5,451 nt of DNA, from contig PBSN01000009.1 of the NCBI GenBank assembly GCA_002726235.1, positions 1 through 5,451 on the forward strand, read 5' to 3'. Source of the DNA: Nitrospiraceae bacterium. GTDB lineage: Bacteria > Nitrospirota > Nitrospiria > Nitrospirales > UBA2166. Numbering within the stretch: the first letter of the stretch is position 1; each line of letters begins with the position of its first letter. Both the position numbers and the translations under genes were made by a program. The notes beneath the pieces were generated by a model. It worked only from the letters and a program-made list of their open reading frames with translations, did no database searches and was not told the DNA's origin. This document shows positions 1 to 5,451 of the stretch, piece by piece.

Positions 1-2234
1 GACGAAGGCGGAGCAGCATCTGCAGAGAGTTTCGTGCTTTCAAGATCATCAGGAATATCAGTGAACAGAGCAGTTTCCTCAGGAGAGAGAGGCTTGCGGC
101 CGTAGAGTTCACATTTCTTCATGTTGACCTTGATGAGGAGCTTCTTGAGTTCGCTTCGAATGAAGAGGAAGGCTTCGCGAAGCACACGAACATCTTTGTG
201 AAGAAGAGTGATGTCGTCCATGTAGGCGTAAACTTTCAGATCCTTGAAGCGTGGATCACTCTTGAGTTTACGGAGCAGTGGTTGGAGAAGAGCGCAGAAG
301 AACAAGGGAGAGGTGACTGAGCCCTGGCGGCAACCACGCTGACTTTGAACACATTGAATCTCATCCTTGTGGCGGAGGTACAAGTTGGAGTAGTCACCGT
401 ATTCAAGGTCGAAGAGGTGGCGGAACGGACGAAGGACTTCTTCAGAAGCGATAACTTCAGCCATTTTATGGCGGCAGGGAGTGTTGTAGGCGTTGGAGCA
501 GTCGACAGTCAAGACGTAGTACTCTTGATTCATGACGAGATCACGGACGGAGTGGATGATCTTTTCAACACCACCTTTGACCATAATACCATACTGACCG
601 ACGGCAGTAAAGAAGGCACTGAGCTCTTTGGCATGACGATCGAGGAGAAGTCGTGAGGGAATTTTCAAAAGAGCTTCGCCCATGGCGATGGGGCGGACAG
701 TGGGACAGCGGTCTCCAGGTTTTGATGGCTTGGGTAAGGCAATCAAGTTGCATTCACGAAGAATCGCGCGGACGATGTGATTCTCGGGGAAGTCGTTGTT
801 GGCGATGGCGTTGACAAGGTCGGTGATGCGGCGTGCCATGATGGTGCCGTGATGAAGATCCGTGAGGAGAGGGTGGAGTAGTTCTTCAGTCCAGCCGCTG
901 GGGCCTGGAGCGGTACCATCACGATGACTCTTGACATCGTTGAGAACTTCTTGGATTGTGAATGGCGGTTCGATTCTCACCTTCTCTTGATCCAGTTTCC
1001 AAGCAGAAGGTGGTCCACGAGTACAAGTCGCAGGATTGCGATGGTCGGTGTCGGGAGGAGCAGGGGGATGGAGACTCTTCATCTGATCGAGGATGCCAAT
1101 CATATTCGGATATCCAGATTGGTGCCGTTGTGGGGTGAAGAAGGGTGGAAGAGGATTCACATCAGCAATAGCACCCAGTAAAGTTTTGGCGGCTTTACCA
1201 GGACGACCGAGAGAGTTGAAGCGAAGAGCGCGATGAACGACGCGTCTCTCAATTCGCGGAATCTCGTTGAACGATTCCTTGACAGATTTCTGAACTCGCT
1301 TAAAAGGATTAACTGTGAATTCAATCTTCTTTTTGTTGGAGTTGTTTTCATCATCATCATGATCGTTGTCATCATCATCTTTATCAGCGTCGTCTGCATC
1401 GACTTTCTTGGGTTGGACTGTGGCTTTAGAAAGCATCACGTTGCGGACTTTGATGAGATGATTATCAAATCTTGGAGCTTGATTGACGCAGTTGCCTTGG
1501 ATCATGGAAGACCAAAGCGAGACAGGATCATTTCCAAAACGTTGGAGTTGTTCGAGAGTTTTCGGATGGTGTTGTTGTTGTTGTCCATCAGTGCCGTATG
1601 CAGGAGGCGGAGGACGTGTTGATGATGAAATGTTCGTAGAAGAATCAGTTGCACTGTTATCGTTATTATTATTATTATTATTATTATCATCGTCATCATT
1701 TTGAGAATCGCTTTTCATCTTGTCATTTTTGTTGTTCTCAGAAGACGCAGTCGGAGAAGCATCTGTGCGAAGTGCGTTAGCATCTTGAGAACGGTAGATG
1801 GCGTCGAGGAAGATAGCAGCGGCCTCTTGATTTTGATGAATCTTCTCATGGCAGTTTTGGGTGAACTCGATTTCACTTTTCACAGCAGCTTCGCGGGCGT
1901 TGGAGGCTTGGCCGAGCAAGTAACGAGGCGCGCCGAGGAGATGGATCAAAAATTCAGCATTCACTAGCAAGTTGGCGGCATCGCGTTGGAGTTTGTTGTA
2001 GTGAGAGGCTGCGACGGACTGTTTGTAGTTGTGAACGTCAGTGATTGTTGTCAAGAGGATTTGCCAGGAGCGATGGAGATGAGTTGGCAAAGCACGGACT
2101 GTGCGGAGATTGGCGATAGCAGCGGCCATGAAATTTTGCTTGAGATCTGGATCAGCAATGCCCTGAATGGCGTTGTGGACATTGTAGAGGGCTTCCTCTG
2201 AGCCCGTGTCGAGGCATTCAACAAATTTCTTCAT
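1..2234 (-). CDS. Reverse transcriptase of non-LTR (LINE/CRE/R2-like) type, 3' end beyond window
   Basis: Reading the minus strand from ATG 2234-2232, 744 codons are open to the left edge, so the C-terminus is missing. Residues about 440-700 carry an RT core of non-LTR type: GTAPGPSGW at 440-448, RPIAMGE at 514-520, GGVEK at 554-558, motif A VDCSNAYNT with catalytic D578, motif B RGCRQGSVTSPLFF from R633, and motif C YMDD at 671-674. All three catalytic Asp are present (D578, D673, D674). The N-terminal half is helical-looking, then low complexity: DDDD plus eight Asn at 180-191, QQQQ at 218-221, and an Asp/Lys-rich stretch at about 278-304. I saw no APE-type endonuclease and no zinc finger before the RT. 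The GPSGW, RPI and QG...GG.E pattern resembles CRE/R2/NeSL-type RTs, which usually carry a restriction-like endonuclease after the RT; that part would lie off the window. TAA codons at 2303-2298 block upstream extension to another ATG. RT identity is firm; the clade is inferred. Confidence 0.9.
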   Translation of the reverse strand, partial: MKKFVECLDTGSEEALYNVHNAIQGIADPDLKQNFMAAAIANLRTVRALPTHLHRSWQILLTTITDVHNYKQSVAASHYNKLQRDAANLLVNAEFLIHLLGAPRYLLGQASNAREAAVKSEIEFTQNCHEKIHQNQEAAAIFLDAIYRSQDANALRTDASPTASSENNKNDKMKSDSQNDDDDNNNNNNNNDNSATDSSTNISSSTRPPPPAYGTDGQQQQHHPKTLEQLQRFGNDPVSLWSSMIQGNCVNQAPRFDNHLIKVRNVMLSKATVQPKKVDADDADKDDDDNDHDDDENNSNKKKIEFTVNPFKRVQKSVKESFNEIPRIERRVVHRALRFNSLGRPGKAAKTLLGAIADVNPLPPFFTPQRHQSGYPNMIGILDQMKSLHPPAPPDTDHRNPATCTRGPPSAWKLDQEKVRIEPPFTIQEVLNDVKSHRDGTAPGPSGWTEELLHPLLTDLHHGTIMARRITDLVNAIANNDFPENHIVRAILRECNLIALPKPSKPGDRCPTVRPIAMGEALLKIPSRLLLDRHAKELSAFFTAVGQYGIMVKGGVEKIIHSVRDLVMNQEYYVLTVDCSNAYNTPCRHKMAEVIASEEVLRPFRHLFDLEYGDYSNLYLRHKDEIQCVQSQRGCRQGSVTSPLFFCALLQPLLRKLKSDPRFKDLKVYAYMDDITLLHKDVRVLREAFLFIRSELKKLLIKVNMKKCELYGRKPLSPEETALFTDIPDDLESTKLSADAAPPS
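1350..1379. repeat. ATC-rich simple-sequence tract encoding an Asp-rich segment
   Basis: Imperfect ATC repeats on the plus strand (three ATC, ATG, ATC, GTT, GTC, three ATC) encode an acidic DDDDNDHDDD segment of the left RT gene (residues 286-295). It lies in the disordered region before the RT core. Confidence 0.75.
1665..1685. repeat. ATT trinucleotide microsatellite (7 units)
   Basis: Seven uninterrupted ATT units on the plus strand, flanked by gtt on the left and four at(c)/gtc-type codons on the right. Within the left RT gene they encode seven of the eight consecutive Asn at residues 184-191, next to an Asp run. Probably a length-variable linker. Confidence 0.9.
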
Positions 2235-2361
2235 CGCGTTGTTGTTGATGGTATCTTCAGTAAGGAGAAGATCTTCAGCAAGGAGAAGATCATCAAATTA
2301 TTACTGTTTTGTTGTTTGTTTTGTAGTTGCATCCAAGTTATCAAATCATTCTAAATCATTA
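2235..2361. other. Spacer between the two retroelement coding regions
   Basis: 127 bases, AT-rich near the RT-RNase H stop. It contains the 8-mer aaatcatt twice (2343-2350, 2353-2360), the related strings atcaaattat (2292-2301) and atcaaatcatt (2340-2350), and the 18-bp tandem duplication listed separately. No AATAAA signal on the minus strand and no convincing terminal repeat. In the downstream gene's frame, 21 sense codons separate TAA 2300-2298 from ATG 2234. Confidence 0.6.
2253..2288. repeat. 18-bp tandem duplication (two copies)
   Basis: Copy 1 is 2253-2270 and copy 2 is 2271-2288; they differ at one base (atcttcagtaaggagaag versus atcttcagcaaggagaag). The copies lie 19-54 bases before the ATG of the left RT gene and, read in its frame, encode two DLLL-plus-acidic units (AED/TED) with no stop. 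It may be part of the 5' leader or an N-terminal extension that lacks an ATG. Confidence 0.85.
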
Positions 2362-5300
2362 TTAACCTTTAACAGAGGAAGAAAGAAAACTAGAAAGTTC
2401 TTGTCGCGCCAACCGCCCGAGAGAACCTCTGTTATCGTAGTATTTTCTAACCTCAGTATCAGTGATGAAGGCGGAGTCGGCAGTGCGGCCACGAGAAGGC
2501 TTATCAGCCCAGTTGTCCTTAGTGTTGACGTAGGACACAGAGAAGGAGAAATCCTCTTCGACGAGGAAATTGACGGATTCGATAATCGCAGCATTGAGAG
2601 AAGGAGAAGTCTTGCTCTTACCCTTTTGAGCAGCGGCGACAACACTAGTGTTATCGATGCGGATGTCGACGTTTTTGTTCTTGAGAAGTCGTTCTTTGAA
2701 GTGAGTGAGAGCGAGCCAGAGGGCGCGGGCTTCGAGTTCAGCGATTGTTTCAGCAGAAGGATTGTGGATTTCTTTATCCCACTTACCACCAATAATTGCA
2801 ACCGAGCCATCAGAAGAGATGAAGTAGGCTCCCCAGCCGGAGACAGAAGCATCAGTGAAAAGAAGATCGTAGTATTTATTTTTATTATTGTTGACATTTT
2901 CACCAGACGCAGGCAAGGAGAGAGAGGATTTTGCAGATTTCAACCACTTGTTGAGCTGGTCGCAGACGGAGCGTGGAAGTTCAACCTTGGTGTCGAGCGG
3001 CGTACCACGGTTGAGTTTGGAAACTTGACGGTTGGCCCACTTCATGGCGTAGAAGTAGTTGCCAGGGACTATGCGGAGCACACTAGAGCAGAAGAAGAGG
3101 CGGGAGATATCTTTCTCGAGATCGGTGATGAGGATTTCAGAGCCGTAGGCGTAGGACTGCGGGAGTTTCGAGAGAGTCTTGGAGGCGACGGAGACCTTGT
3201 GGTTCTTGTGGTCGAAGTGAATACCGATGAAGTCGTATTCGTCAGCAGCAGTGACATCACCACCCTTCCAGGTGACATTGCAGGCCTTTCCAACGAGACG
3301 GATGCGATCGAGGTCGAGTTGAACATCTTCACGATTACCAGCAGTGCGGAAGCCATCGATCCAGACGGAGGTGCGAGTAGCAGCGGAGGCGAGCTTGACA
3401 GTTTCACCATTAATAACAGCAGTAGGCTTGACGGCGGTCATCTTACCAGCGATCGTTTCGACGATGAGTTGCATCAATTCAGCGGAAGTGCGGAGGCCCA
3501 TCGGAAGGCGAGTGAGTTCGTACCAGTTCTTCTCAGCATCGCAGAAGCGGAGCATGCGGCGGAATTCCTTGGGGATGACGACTTGGAAGAAGGAGATCTT
3601 GCAATCACCAGTACCAGCAGTTTCACGACGAACATCATCGATGAAGAAACCAGGAGCACGGAGCTGAGACATTTGAGGTTGATACTTGGCGACATCTTCG
3701 AGGTAGTCGTTGACGCAGTGGGTCCAGAGGATGGAACGGAGGCGTTGCTTCTTATCGGAGTCGAGTTCGACGACGTTGAACATGGTGTTCTGACCAACGG
3801 TGTTGCAGACATCTTCGGCAGGCACAGGAGCGGCGATACCATCAGCAGCGAGTTGTCGAGCGTGTTGAGGAAGATAGCGGCTTTGCTTCTCGGCGACGTT
3901 GTTCAAACGAGCTTGCTTCTCGGCGGAGATTTCATTAGAGAGATGACTAAGAGCGTCGGCGAAGGTGTTCTTCCAGAGAGTTTCGAAACGGCGAAGATGA
4001 GTGTCGGACATGAAGGTCTTGAGGCGTTCGAGATCGATGACCATGTCCTTGACGTTGTGGGAGTGAAGACGGATTGTTCTGTTCTGTTCATCATTGGCGG
4101 TAGAAGAAGAGTGAGACTTGCGGGCGAAAGTGTGCTTGGTGCGGTACTGGACGTAATCGTAGAGGTCCAACCAGCGAGCGTTTTCAAGAGCAGCAGAAGG
4201 AGAAGGAGAAGCAGCATCTAAAGAAGGCGAGTTGCTTTTTGAGTTCCGAACATTCTTGCGAGAAGAACCTTGTTGTTGATGTAACGAATTGTCGACTCCG
4301 GGAAGTGAGGATTCTGCTTGTCCTGATGCTTGGCCATGATCGGAAGAACGCGGAAGTCGAGCAGATCCTGATCGATGAACTGAACGAGCTTGTCCAGCGT
4401 CGTTCGCTTGAAGGAGTGACAAGTCAGGTTGCGGAGGATTCGGTCCTTCTTCAGCCAAGCAAGCATTTGATTGGTCGACTTGGGACACAACAACTGATCC
4501 TTCTTTAATTTCGAGATCTGACTTTTGAGAAGACGGAGCAGATGAGGATGTTTTTCTTCCACCAACACTGTGAAGTTCACCGGACGGAACGGCTTCACTC
4601 TTGACGTTTTGATTGCTGACCCCCAACAAATCACGATTTCGTTCCTCTGAAGACACTGATGATGGATGATGAAGTTGGCCTTGACGAGTTTCACCAGATC
4701 GCCCCACCTGCTTGCTGTTTTGTACGCCAGGTAGATGCACGCTTGAAGACGAGGATTGTTTGTTGCTGAGTTGTGAAGAAGATGTTGAAGTTGGGTGTCT
4801 GTCATCACCGGAGCCTGTTTTGGAGATTGGCTTGCCATCATTACACGACGACTCTTGAGGAAGTACGAGAGATTGTACGAGTCTCCCATTTCCAGCTCCA
4901 CCATCAGAGTTTTGAGATTCTTGGCGTAATCCAGTTGAGTTGACGCCATTAACGGTTCCAGCTTGTTGTTGCGAAGGACTCGACGGTCCAGGACGAAGTT
5001 GATTAGACGAAGGTCTGTTGGAAGATGGTGTTGCTGATCGTTTGTTTCGGTCATGTAGTTGATTGCGTTGGAGAGGAGGCTTGCCTTCTTGGTCCACGTT
5101 TCCTTCACGAACATGTTTTGAACTTGTTGCTTGAGATTCAGAATCCATGGATCCTGGATGTTGCAGCGCTTGAGAGACGATAGGATCACTTGACGAGCTA
5201 CCTGCGACGACGTGAGCTTGTTGCTGTTGTTGTTGTTGTTGTTCATTTCGTTCAGCGGATCGAAGGTAGTCGAGCCACGCGGCGGTGACGGCTTGGTTGT

Positions 5301-5451
5301 GGTGCTTGGCGAAGACACGACGTTGAGAGTGGAAGGCGCGCCACTCTTTGCTGTTGCGCTTGATGCCCATCTGACGCGGCGTGAAGAATTTCTTGGTTTC
5401 AGGGTTTGTCTGGAAGTAACGATTCCAGTACTTCGGCTTGAAATCTTCAGC
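2362..5451 (-). CDS. Gag-like / reverse transcriptase / RNase H polyprotein of a VIPER/DIRS-like tyrosine-recombinase retroelement, 5' partial
   Basis: One frame is open from the right edge to TAA at 2364-2362 (1029 codons in window). The first in-window ATG is 5370-5368, but 27 codons before it are open and protein-like (rich in F, W, Y, K, R), so the true start lies off the window. Numbering from ATG 5370: a basic Gag-like tail to about residue 44, a Ser/Gln/Asn/Gly-rich stretch 45-384 that overlaps the recombinase gene, then RT and RNase H. RT signs are RSILWT at 545-550, motif A GDCKISFFQ with D589, LTRLPMGLRTSAEL from 619, and a motif C equivalent VWIDGF at 669-674. The RNase H quartet looks complete: D840 in TDAS, E878 in ELEARAL, D906 in IDNTS, D956 in NWADKPSR. 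Its role would be cDNA synthesis and RNA removal. The LPMG/DN-like RT and ADKPSR ending favour the VIPER/DIRS/Ngaro group over LTR elements. RT-RNase H is well supported; Gag is inferred from position only. Confidence 0.85.
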   Translation of the reverse strand, partial: AEDFKPKYWNRYFQTNPETKKFFTPRQMGIKRNSKEWRAFHSQRRVFAKHHNQAVTAAWLDYLRSAERNEQQQQQQQQAHVVAGSSSSDPIVSQALQHPGSMDSESQATSSKHVREGNVDQEGKPPLQRNQLHDRNKRSATPSSNRPSSNQLRPGPSSPSQQQAGTVNGVNSTGLRQESQNSDGGAGNGRLVQSLVLPQESSCNDGKPISKTGSGDDRHPTSTSSSQLSNKQSSSSSVHLPGVQNSKQVGRSGETRQGQLHHPSSVSSEERNRDLLGVSNQNVKSEAVPSGELHSVGGRKTSSSAPSSQKSDLEIKEGSVVVSQVDQSNACLAEEGPNPPQPDLSLLQANDAGQARSVHRSGSARLPRSSDHGQASGQAESSLPGVDNSLHQQQGSSRKNVRNSKSNSPSLDAASPSPSAALENARWLDLYDYVQYRTKHTFARKSHSSSTANDEQNRTIRLHSHNVKDMVIDLERLKTFMSDTHLRRFETLWKNTFADALSHLSNEISAEKQARLNNVAEKQSRYLPQHARQLAADGIAAPVPAEDVCNTVGQNTMFNVVELDSDKKQRLRSILWTHCVNDYLEDVAKYQPQMSQLRAPGFFIDDVRRETAGTGDCKISFFQVVIPKEFRRMLRFCDAEKNWYELTRLPMGLRTSAELMQLIVETIAGKMTAVKPTAVINGETVKLASAATRTSVWIDGFRTAGNREDVQLDLDRIRLVGKACNVTWKGGDVTAADEYDFIGIHFDHKNHKVSVASKTLSKLPQSYAYGSEILITDLEKDISRLFFCSSVLRIVPGNYFYAMKWANRQVSKLNRGTPLDTKVELPRSVCDQLNKWLKSAKSSLSLPASGENVNNNKNKYYDLLFTDASVSGWGAYFISSDGSVAIIGGKWDKEIHNPSAETIAELEARALWLALTHFKERLLKNKNVDIRIDNTSVVAAAQKGKSKTSPSLNAAIIESVNFLVEEDFSFSVSYVNTKDNWADKPSRGRTADSAFITDTEVRKYYDNRGSLGRLARQELSSFLSSSVKG
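2491..2871 (-). other. RNase H domain of the YR retroelement
   Basis: Residues about 834-960 from ATG 5370. All four acidic active-site positions are visible: D840 (codon 2853-2851), E878 (2739-2737), D906 (2655-2653), D956 (2505-2503). TDAS..GWGAY and the terminal NWADKPSR motif are typical of RNase H fused to DIRS/VIPER-type RTs. The domain looks complete and probably functional. Confidence 0.85.
3166..3768 (-). other. Reverse transcriptase domain of the YR retroelement
   Basis: Residues about 535-735 counted from ATG 5370. The first catalytic Asp is D589 (codon 3606-3604), followed by FF two codons after the KIS. LPMG at 622-625 is the motif-B-side signature of VIPER/DIRS RTs. The catalytic box is I671-D672-G673 (3360-3352), not YxDD. 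It is followed by FIGIHFD at 714-720 and KTLSKL at 731-736, matching the thumb-side 'FLG...KL' pattern of LTR, DIRS and VIPER RTs. Domain edges are approximate. Confidence 0.75.
4218..5246 (-). CDS. Tyrosine recombinase (retroelement integrase), nested in another frame of the Gag-RT gene
   Basis: From ATG 5246-5244 to TAG 4220-4218 gives 342 residues, a typical size for retroelement tyrosine recombinases. Catalytic-domain residues are in the expected order: R180 in TASRWGDL (codon 4709-4707), a possible hairpin Lys K213 in AIKTSR, H277 in CHSFKRT (4418-4416), H307 in MAKHQD (4328-4326), and nucleophile Y322 in STIRYIN (4283-4281). The usual HxxR box reads H-S-F-K-R, with Lys at the Arg position and Arg next to it. 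The N-terminus begins with six Asn and looks disordered; residues about 40-140 probably form the core-binding domain. The enzyme would integrate circular cDNA by site-specific recombination, as proposed for DIRS/VIPER elements. The same frame is open upstream to the window edge but has no ATG there; a GTG at 5318 is an unlikely eukaryotic start. Expression would need internal initiation at 5246 or a +1 shift from the Gag-like frame. Confidence 0.87.
   Translation of the reverse strand: MNNNNNNSNKLTSSQVARQVILSSLKRCNIQDPWILNLKQQVQNMFVKETWTKKASLLSNAINYMTETNDQQHHLPTDLRLINFVLDRRVLRNNKLEPLMASTQLDYAKNLKTLMVELEMGDSYNLSYFLKSRRVMMASQSPKQAPVMTDTQLQHLLHNSATNNPRLQACIYLAYKTASRWGDLVKLVKANFIIHHQCLQRNEIVICWGSAIKTSRVKPFRPVNFTVLVEEKHPHLLRLLKSQISKLKKDQLLCPKSTNQMLAWLKKDRILRNLTCHSFKRTTLDKLVQFIDQDLLDFRVLPIMAKHQDKQNPHFPESTIRYINNKVLLARMFGTQKATRLL
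5226..5243. repeat. GTT/AAC trinucleotide microsatellite (6 units)
   Basis: Six GTT units on the plus strand. On the minus strand they encode six Asn directly after the recombinase ATG (5246-5244), and Gln residues in the Gag-RT frame (poly-Gln at residues 44-51). The tract is therefore read in two frames and sits where the two reading frames appear to change roles. Confidence 0.9.

What the first reader, a model, noticed from the sequence alone, without database searches (positions are those of the whole stretch)
4218..5246. Whole tyrosine recombinase gene overprinted inside a continuous Gag-RT-RNase H frame
Two frames of the same strand stay open together across 1029 bases. The YR frame carries R, H, H and Y catalytic residues. 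The other frame joins a Gag-like segment upstream to RT-RNase H downstream without a stop. Partial overlap of YR and RT ORFs is known in DIRS elements, but complete embedding of the recombinase in a possible Gag-RT fusion is an unusual layout. Over 340 stop-free codons by chance in a shifted frame is unlikely, so the second frame may be maintained.
Basis: partly seen in the sequence, partly recalled or inferred. Interest (0 to 1): 0.8.

Follow-up and report, generated by a model that had tools for sequence, protein, structure and literature searches.

The report
Recombinase gene nested inside retrotransposon RT frame
This is most of a retrotransposon from an unidentified (probably protist) genome that strayed into a bacterial assembly; its recombinase gene lies wholly inside a second reading frame that appears to be reached when ribosomes slip back one base at the end of the coat-protein gene, and a distant relative has the same layout, so the double use of the DNA is real.

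Summary
Observation confirmed and enlarged. On the minus strand a tyrosine recombinase (YR) frame and a −1 frame are open together, over 1,635 nt once the rest of the contig (8,358 b) is read. This is not chance: 0 stops against 18 expected over the YR domain (0 of 20,000 codon permutations), T never at YR third positions where it would make a stop (0/93 against 68/248), and no F/Y/W in the linker against 19 expected. The "Gag-like" segment is not Gag. The likely Gag lies upstream in the YR frame and ends UGA immediately followed by the YR-frame AUG. The RT frame overlaps Gag's end by 60 nt, which hold G_GGA_AAC, a 6-nt spacer and the start of a −21.8 kcal/mol hairpin, the most stable on the contig: a textbook −1 frameshift signal. 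L171, its sister in the RT-RNase H tree (32% identity), has the same layout, with a slippery G run and hairpin at the same junction. Four further loci nest YR in the RT frame in the same phase. Best reading: a VIPER-like YR retrotransposon making Gag, Gag-RT by frameshift, and YR by reinitiation or readthrough. Overlapping YR and RT ORFs are known there; I found no description of the decoding signal. Expression is untested.

The parts
4218..5246 (-). Tyrosine recombinase domain, 342 aa, ATG 5246 to stop 4218-4220; wholly inside the RT frame
   Evidence: Translation; integrase phrog_1 E 2.5e-8; 35% identity to the YR of L171 over 223 aligned residues
4218..5451 (-). YR-frame ORF, window part. 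On contig L007 (same numbering) it extends to ATG 5855 (545 aa in all), in frame with Gag and directly after Gag's TGA (5858-5856). Coding status of 5855-5247 in this frame is uncertain.
   Evidence: over 5855-5247 no stops are expected anyway and residues show no bias
2362..5451 (-). RT frame, window part (opens at 5916 on contig L007; 1184 aa in all), -1 relative to Gag and YR: pre-RT segment, hydrophilic linker across the YR gene, RT, RNase H; stop 2362-2364. Outside the window on L007: Gag-like ORF 7898-5856, slippery heptamer G_GGA_AAC 5883-5877, hairpin 5870-5833.
   Evidence: nearest relative L171 RT-RH 33% identical over 527 aligned residues
4221..5246 (-). Dual-coding stretch: S/N/Q/G-rich linker in the RT frame over the YR domain, without F, Y or W
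2365..4044 (-). RT and RNase H domains: motif A DCKISFFQV (~3606), LTRLPMG, motif C WIDG (~3363), RNase H FTDASVSGWGA, AELEARAL, IDNTSVV, NWADKPSR
   Evidence: Motif alignment with relatives, tree
3..2297 (-). Separate open frame with a LINE-type reverse transcriptase (first ATG 2234), running off the contig; not shown to belong to the element
   Evidence: RVT_1 E 2.8e-18; L1 and R2 RT structures

Best explanation
The contig carries most of a VIPER-like tyrosine-recombinase retrotransposon of an unidentified, probably protist, host, binned by mistake into a prokaryote assembly. One RNA encodes three products. (1) Gag is read in frame 0 and stops at UGA. (2) A fraction of ribosomes slip back one base at G_GGA_AAC, stalled by a stable hairpin 6 nt downstream, and read on in the -1 frame through a hydrophilic linker into RT-RNase H, giving Gag-RT. 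(3) YR is read in frame 0 after the Gag stop, by reinitiation at the adjacent AUG, by stop readthrough, or from the AUG at 5246. The whole YR gene therefore lies under the RT frame's linker, and the same DNA is read in two frames. Shown from sequence: the nesting, the stop avoidance, the composition bias of the linker, the heptamer-spacer-hairpin, and the same layout in a 32%-identical relative. Inferred: that frameshifting happens, how YR is started, that Gag is a Gag, and that YR integrates a circular cDNA as proposed for DIRS-order elements.
For: RT frame open across YR: 0 stops against 17.9 expected over the domain and 28.7 over the whole YR ORF, 0 of 20,000 permutations. T at YR third positions: 0/93 where a stop would form, 68/248 elsewhere. 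Given the YR protein and no stops, F+Y+W 0 against 19.4 expected and S+N+Q+G 164 against 112. Heptamer in the 60-nt Gag/RT overlap with the contig's most stable hairpin at a 6-nt spacing. Sister L171 (support 100/99): Gag f1 to 2830, stop, YR f1 from ATG 2837, RT f0 from 2725, i.e. -1. Its Gag's only two XXXYYYZ heptamers (GGGGGGA, GGGGGGC) lie in the overlap, under a -29 to -31 kcal/mol hairpin spanning UGA and AUG. Nesting in the same phase, with no stops, in L138 (two copies), L166, L167 and L169. RT motif C in the whole clade is xIDN or TDN or, here, IDG, not YxDD.
Against: No expression data. L171's heptamers are G-only runs in a glycine-rich tail, not the classic AAA/UUU type, and its hairpin ranks only in the top 1% of a GC-rich contig. 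L169's A_AAA_AAC would lead into the YR frame, not RT, and has no notable hairpin. The linker itself is not conserved in sequence between window and L171 (z 3.6). One N (5874) lies between heptamer and stop; the frame assignment assumes it is one base. The permutation null is imperfect: the Gag control shows a modest stop deficit in the same shifted frame (45 against 61, z -3.4). No terminal repeats were found. AlphaFold models from single sequences were too poor to use.
Confidence: 0.74

Rival explanations
1. The second frame is open only because of codon bias or composition; it is not translated.
For: The YR frame is naturally stop-poor when the RT frame codes: Gag and RT carry under 1 stop per 100 codons in their +1 frame, and over 5855-5247 no stop is expected at all.
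Against: The frame in question is the opposite one (RT frame given YR), which carries 6.6-8.2 stops per 100 codons in the Gag, RT and LINE-type genes of the same contig, yet has none in 545 codons. Residue bias beyond stop avoidance. Same state in relatives.
Confidence: 0.04
2. RT-RNase H is not fused to Gag; it is translated from its own AUG (first in-frame AUG in QMGIKR, about 5370) by internal initiation or from a trans-spliced mRNA, and the G_GGA_AAC hairpin is coincidence.
For: Literature treats VIPER and TATE as three separate ORFs (PMC6681497). Only part of the signal recurs in L169.
Against: Heptamer, spacing and the contig's best hairpin coincide at a 60-nt overlap in the right frame, and a similar junction exists in L171. 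The RT frame is open with no AUG for about 550 nt upstream of QMGIKR, up to the Gag overlap.
Confidence: 0.17
3. A variant of the best explanation for its third step: YR is made by stop-codon readthrough as a Gag-YR fusion rather than by reinitiation, so Gag has two alternative extensions, -1 for RT and 0 for YR.
For: YR is in frame with Gag and separated by one stop in both the window contig (TGA then ATG) and L171 (TGA CTC ATG); the hairpin spans the stop.
Against: UGA-A is not a classic leaky context, and an AUG stands at or near the stop in both, which fits reinitiation better (general knowledge).
Confidence: 0.35
4. It is a gene system of the prokaryote whose assembly holds the contig.
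For: The contig is binned in a 1.87-Mb assembly of similar GC.
Against: No match in 269 genomes of its class. Retrotransposon of a kind reported from eukaryotes (VIPER from kinetoplastids). Its relatives sit in other bacterial assemblies, one titled Oceanobacter sp., a name that PMC6681497 lists as a likely contaminant source.
Confidence: 0.03

Closest known systems
VIPER and TATE retrotransposons of kinetoplastids (PMC6681497, PMC12278014)
   Same: Order Gag-like, YR, RT/RNase H; overlapping YR and RT/RH ORFs; T. cruzi ORF sizes 492/338/948 aa against 680, 342-545 and 1184 here. 5,334 nt of coding in an element reported at 3.4 kb (PMC5994713) implies heavy overlap there too (my arithmetic). 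RT groups with contaminant loci read here as VIPER/TATE-like.
   Different: Gag and YR share a frame split by one stop; -1 frameshift signal; motif C IDG instead of IDN; CHSFKR in YR. Split direct repeats not found; host unknown.
DIRS-1 and DIRS1-like elements (PMC3266345)
   Same: YR retrotransposon with long overlap between YR and pol ORFs.
   Different: There the catalytic YR part lies outside the overlap, downstream; RT has YxDD and often a methyltransferase. Here the whole YR lies inside the RT frame and upstream of RT, and the tree separates the two groups (100/100).
Ngaro elements (e.g. Cafeteria, PMC8547959)
   Same: Gag, RT/RH and YR.
   Different: Order is Gag, RT/RH, YR.
Retroviral and LTR-element gag-pol -1 frameshifting (PMC5009743)
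   Same: G_GGA_AAC, short spacer, stable stem, pol in -1 frame.
   Different: The -1 frame first runs under a complete recombinase gene.
Hepadnavirus polymerase spacer over preS/S (own knowledge)
   Same: A disordered spacer of a reverse transcriptase overlaps another gene.
   Different: Different overlapped protein, no frameshift; an analogy only.

Membership tests
VIPER-like YR retrotransposons | Tyrosine recombinase instead of DDE integrase or endonuclease | tested here: met
   Integrase phrog_1 E 2.5e-8; R, K, H(xxK), H, Y motifs, shared with L171
VIPER-like YR retrotransposons | RT followed by RNase H | tested here: met
   Motifs aligned with eight relatives and seven DIRS-like elements; Pfam RT_RNaseH only 0.023
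VIPER-like YR retrotransposons | Order Gag-like, YR, RT/RH | tested here: met
   (Gag by position only; no Pfam match)
VIPER-like YR retrotransposons | Overlapping YR and RT/RH ORFs | tested here: met
VIPER-like YR retrotransposons | RT in the VIPER/TATE clade | tested here: inconclusive
   Groups with contaminant loci read here as VIPER/TATE-like, against DIRS-like, 100/100; no named VIPER reference sequence was available to the tools
VIPER-like YR retrotransposons | Split direct repeats A1 ... B1 A2 B2 | tested here: inconclusive
   None found, but the contig ends inside the neighbouring LINE-type ORF and its 5' end may be incomplete
VIPER-like YR retrotransposons | Kinetoplastid host | not testable with these tools
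   Short contig without host genes; no Rfam match
DIRS1-like elements | RT with YxDD inside the DIRS clade, YR catalytic part downstream of pol | tested here: not met
   YR lies upstream, inside the RT frame
Ngaro elements | Order Gag, RT/RH, YR | tested here: not met
-1 programmed ribosomal frameshift site | X_XXY_YYZ in the upstream frame, inside the overlap | tested here: met
-1 programmed ribosomal frameshift site | Stable structure 5-9 nt downstream | tested here: met
   6-nt spacer, -21.8 kcal/mol
-1 programmed ribosomal frameshift site | Measured frameshift product | not testable with these tools
   needs a reporter assay or proteomics

The most novel reading that the evidence does not exclude
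A sub-lineage of VIPER-like retrotransposons (window contig plus L171) uses one hairpin at the Gag terminus for two recoding outcomes: -1 frameshifting into RT-RNase H, and restart or readthrough at the enclosed UGA/AUG into a recombinase gene that lies entirely under the RT linker. The reverse transcriptase and the recombinase would thus be made in competition from one mRNA junction.
Probability: 0.5. Interest if true: 0.66.

Novelty: new variant of a known kind. Interest (0 to 1): 0.55.

Why it matters
YR retrotransposons are often drawn with overlapping ORFs, but the papers read here do not say how those ORFs are decoded. This contig and its relative give a concrete, cheaply testable signal for Gag-RT fusion and a measurable case of a whole recombinase gene read in two frames, with the same phase kept in deeply diverged relatives. 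It also warns that gene finders and dN/dS tests on such elements will mislead if the second frame is ignored.

Tried and rejected
Relatives by exact peptide patterns in viral contigs and genome contigs: none confirmed; plasmids and phages by tblastn: none; 269 genomes of the assembly's class: only the window itself. Alignment A1 holds two rows that I diversified artificially, only to steer pattern choice; it found nothing and supports no claim. A degenerate RNase H motif (TDASxxGWGA) in genome contigs worked. AlphaFold on single sequences gave pLDDT 42 and 34, so no fold search was run. hhalign of YR against bacterial recombinases was weak; PHROGs was decisive. Considered and rejected: Gag-RT as one frame (Gag is in another frame), a chance open frame, a prokaryotic origin. 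In one search the LINE gene was put in the wrong frame; corrected, and numbers for that gene are quoted from 62.

Full report
What was checked. The window is the first, N-free 5,451 bases of contig C9 of an assembly of 27 contigs and 1.87 Mb. The contig is 8,358 bases long; the rest was fetched as L007, which has the same numbering. All coding discussed is on the minus strand.

The two frames. The YR frame (342 aa from ATG 5246) and the frame that ends in RT-RNase H (open 5451 to 2362) are stop-free together over 4218-5246. On the full contig the YR-frame ORF starts at 5855 and the RT frame opens at 5916, so the overlap is 1,635 nt. YR identity rests on integrase families phrog_1 and phrog_216 (E 2.5e-8 and 2.7e-8), on motifs, and on 35% identity to the YR of L171. 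RT and RNase H identity rests on motifs aligned with relatives; Pfam is weak.

More than chance. With the YR domain protein fixed and its synonymous codons permuted, the RT frame should hold 17.9 stops and holds none (0 of 20,000 permutations; 28.7 expected over the whole YR ORF). With the contig's other codon usage the expectation is 25-27. T never stands at a YR third position where it would make a stop (0 of 93), against 68 of 248 elsewhere. Beyond stop avoidance, stop-free synonymous shuffles predict 19 aromatic residues in the RT-frame linker and there are none, while S, N, Q and G are in excess (164 against 112). Controls on Gag, RT and the LINE-type ORF carry 6.6-8.2 stops per 100 codons in the same relative frame. 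The Gag control does show a modest deficit against its own permutations (z -3.4), so exact P values should not be taken literally. In the other direction the YR frame over the RT coding is cheap to keep open, and over 5855-5247 nothing shows that the YR frame is coding.

What lies upstream. A 680-aa ORF (contig 7898-5856) with a basic, N/G/R-rich tail has the position and look of Gag; no Pfam family matches. It is in the same frame as YR: its TGA is followed at once by the ATG of the YR-frame ORF. The RT frame is -1 to it and overlaps its last 60 nt. In that overlap stands G_GGA_AAC in the Gag frame (5883-5877), named among the most shift-prone heptamers with mammalian ribosomes (PMC5009743). 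Six nucleotides on starts a hairpin of -21.8 kcal/mol, the most stable 48-nt window of the contig's minus strand. It holds the UGA in its 5' arm and the AUG in its loop.

Relatives. A scan of genome contigs for the RNase H motif TDASxxGWGA brought in YR elements from bacterial assemblies that are evidently contaminated. Searches of those assemblies gave more. In the RT-RNase H tree the window is sister to L171 (100/99, 32% identity) inside a clade (100/100) separate from DIRS-like elements. The clade has IDN or TDN at RT motif C where DIRS has YxDD; the window has WIDG. L171 repeats the layout: Gag f1 to 2830, TGA, CTC, ATG of YR in f1, RT in f0 from 2725, YR 2834-4111 wholly inside; RT-frame stops across YR 0 against 8.1 expected. 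In its Gag frame the only XXXYYYZ heptamers are GGGGGGA and GGGGGGC, both in the overlap, followed by a hairpin of about -29 to -31 kcal/mol that spans UGA and AUG. These are G-only runs in a glycine-rich tail, so this is supporting rather than decisive. L138 (two copies), L166, L167 and L169 also nest YR in the RT frame in the same phase (RT = YR -1) with no stops, the statistics being weaker for the GC-rich L138 (the second copy alone is not significant). L165, L168 and L170 fuse YR and RT in one frame and have stops in the others. L169 has Gag in the third frame, with A_AAA_AAC leading into YR, so the way Gag is coupled varies. The linker is not conserved as a sequence between window and L171 (z 3.6) while YR (z 42) and RT-RH (z 110) are: it acts as an open, hydrophilic tether. 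L171's RT frame shows only a weaker composition bias.

How it probably works. Gag is made in bulk; a minor fraction of ribosomes slip into RT-RNase H, as in retroviruses; YR follows from reinitiation or readthrough at the same junction or from AUG 5246. RT copies the RNA and YR inserts the DNA. Frameshifting, YR initiation and activity are inferences. CHSFKR (K at the second catalytic Arg) and WIDG could hint at reduced activity, but CHSIKR stands at the same place in L171 and IDN is standard in the clade.

Known or new. YR/RT overlap is described as frequent and extensive in YR elements and drawn for VIPER and TATE (PMC6681497, PMC12278014). In DIRS1-like elements the catalytic YR part lies outside the overlap (PMC3266345). 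The VIPER study does not mention programmed frameshifting in its main text, and literature searches found no paper describing it for YR elements, within an open-access library only. I file it as VIPER-like in organisation, with membership not closed: terminal repeats and host are untested and no named VIPER sequence was available for the tree.

Noticed in passing
window 3-2297 (minus): A second, LINE-type reverse transcriptase frame opens 65 nt after the RT-RNase H stop (first ATG 2234), leaving no room for the 3' repeats of a YR element. Neighbouring or inserted LINE is likely; a fourth ORF of the element is not excluded. A weak relative lies in L169 on the other strand (E 6e-8).
   Followed up: partly
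L007 7937-8252: Four runs of about 16 A on the coding strand in the 5' region of the element, 74-117 nt apart, with a long pyrimidine tract between two of them.
   Followed up: no
L007 5452-8072: Twenty isolated N in the upstream 2.9 kb, none in the window; reading frames pass through them, so they look like single ambiguous bases, possibly differences between copies.
   Followed up: partly
L138 3046-4430: A second YR copy downstream of the first element, its N-terminal part interrupted by one stop in the YR frame while the RT frame over it stays open.
   Followed up: partly
L067, L069, L112, L137: DIRS-like elements whose YR frame is open for 1,280-1,410 codons through the RT gene and much of Gag as well: the reverse nesting, RT under a YR-frame extension.
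   Followed up: no
G270 (genome of L126, Oceanobacter sp. NORP38) and G269 (genome of L138, ErkenSummer bin-6818): Reference bacterial assemblies that hold several VIPER/TATE-like elements and so appear contaminated with protist DNA.
   Followed up: partly
L009 (G000:C5, 7542 b): Another short, N-bearing contig of the same assembly with only 28% ORF cover, unlike its other contigs; perhaps also foreign.
   Followed up: no
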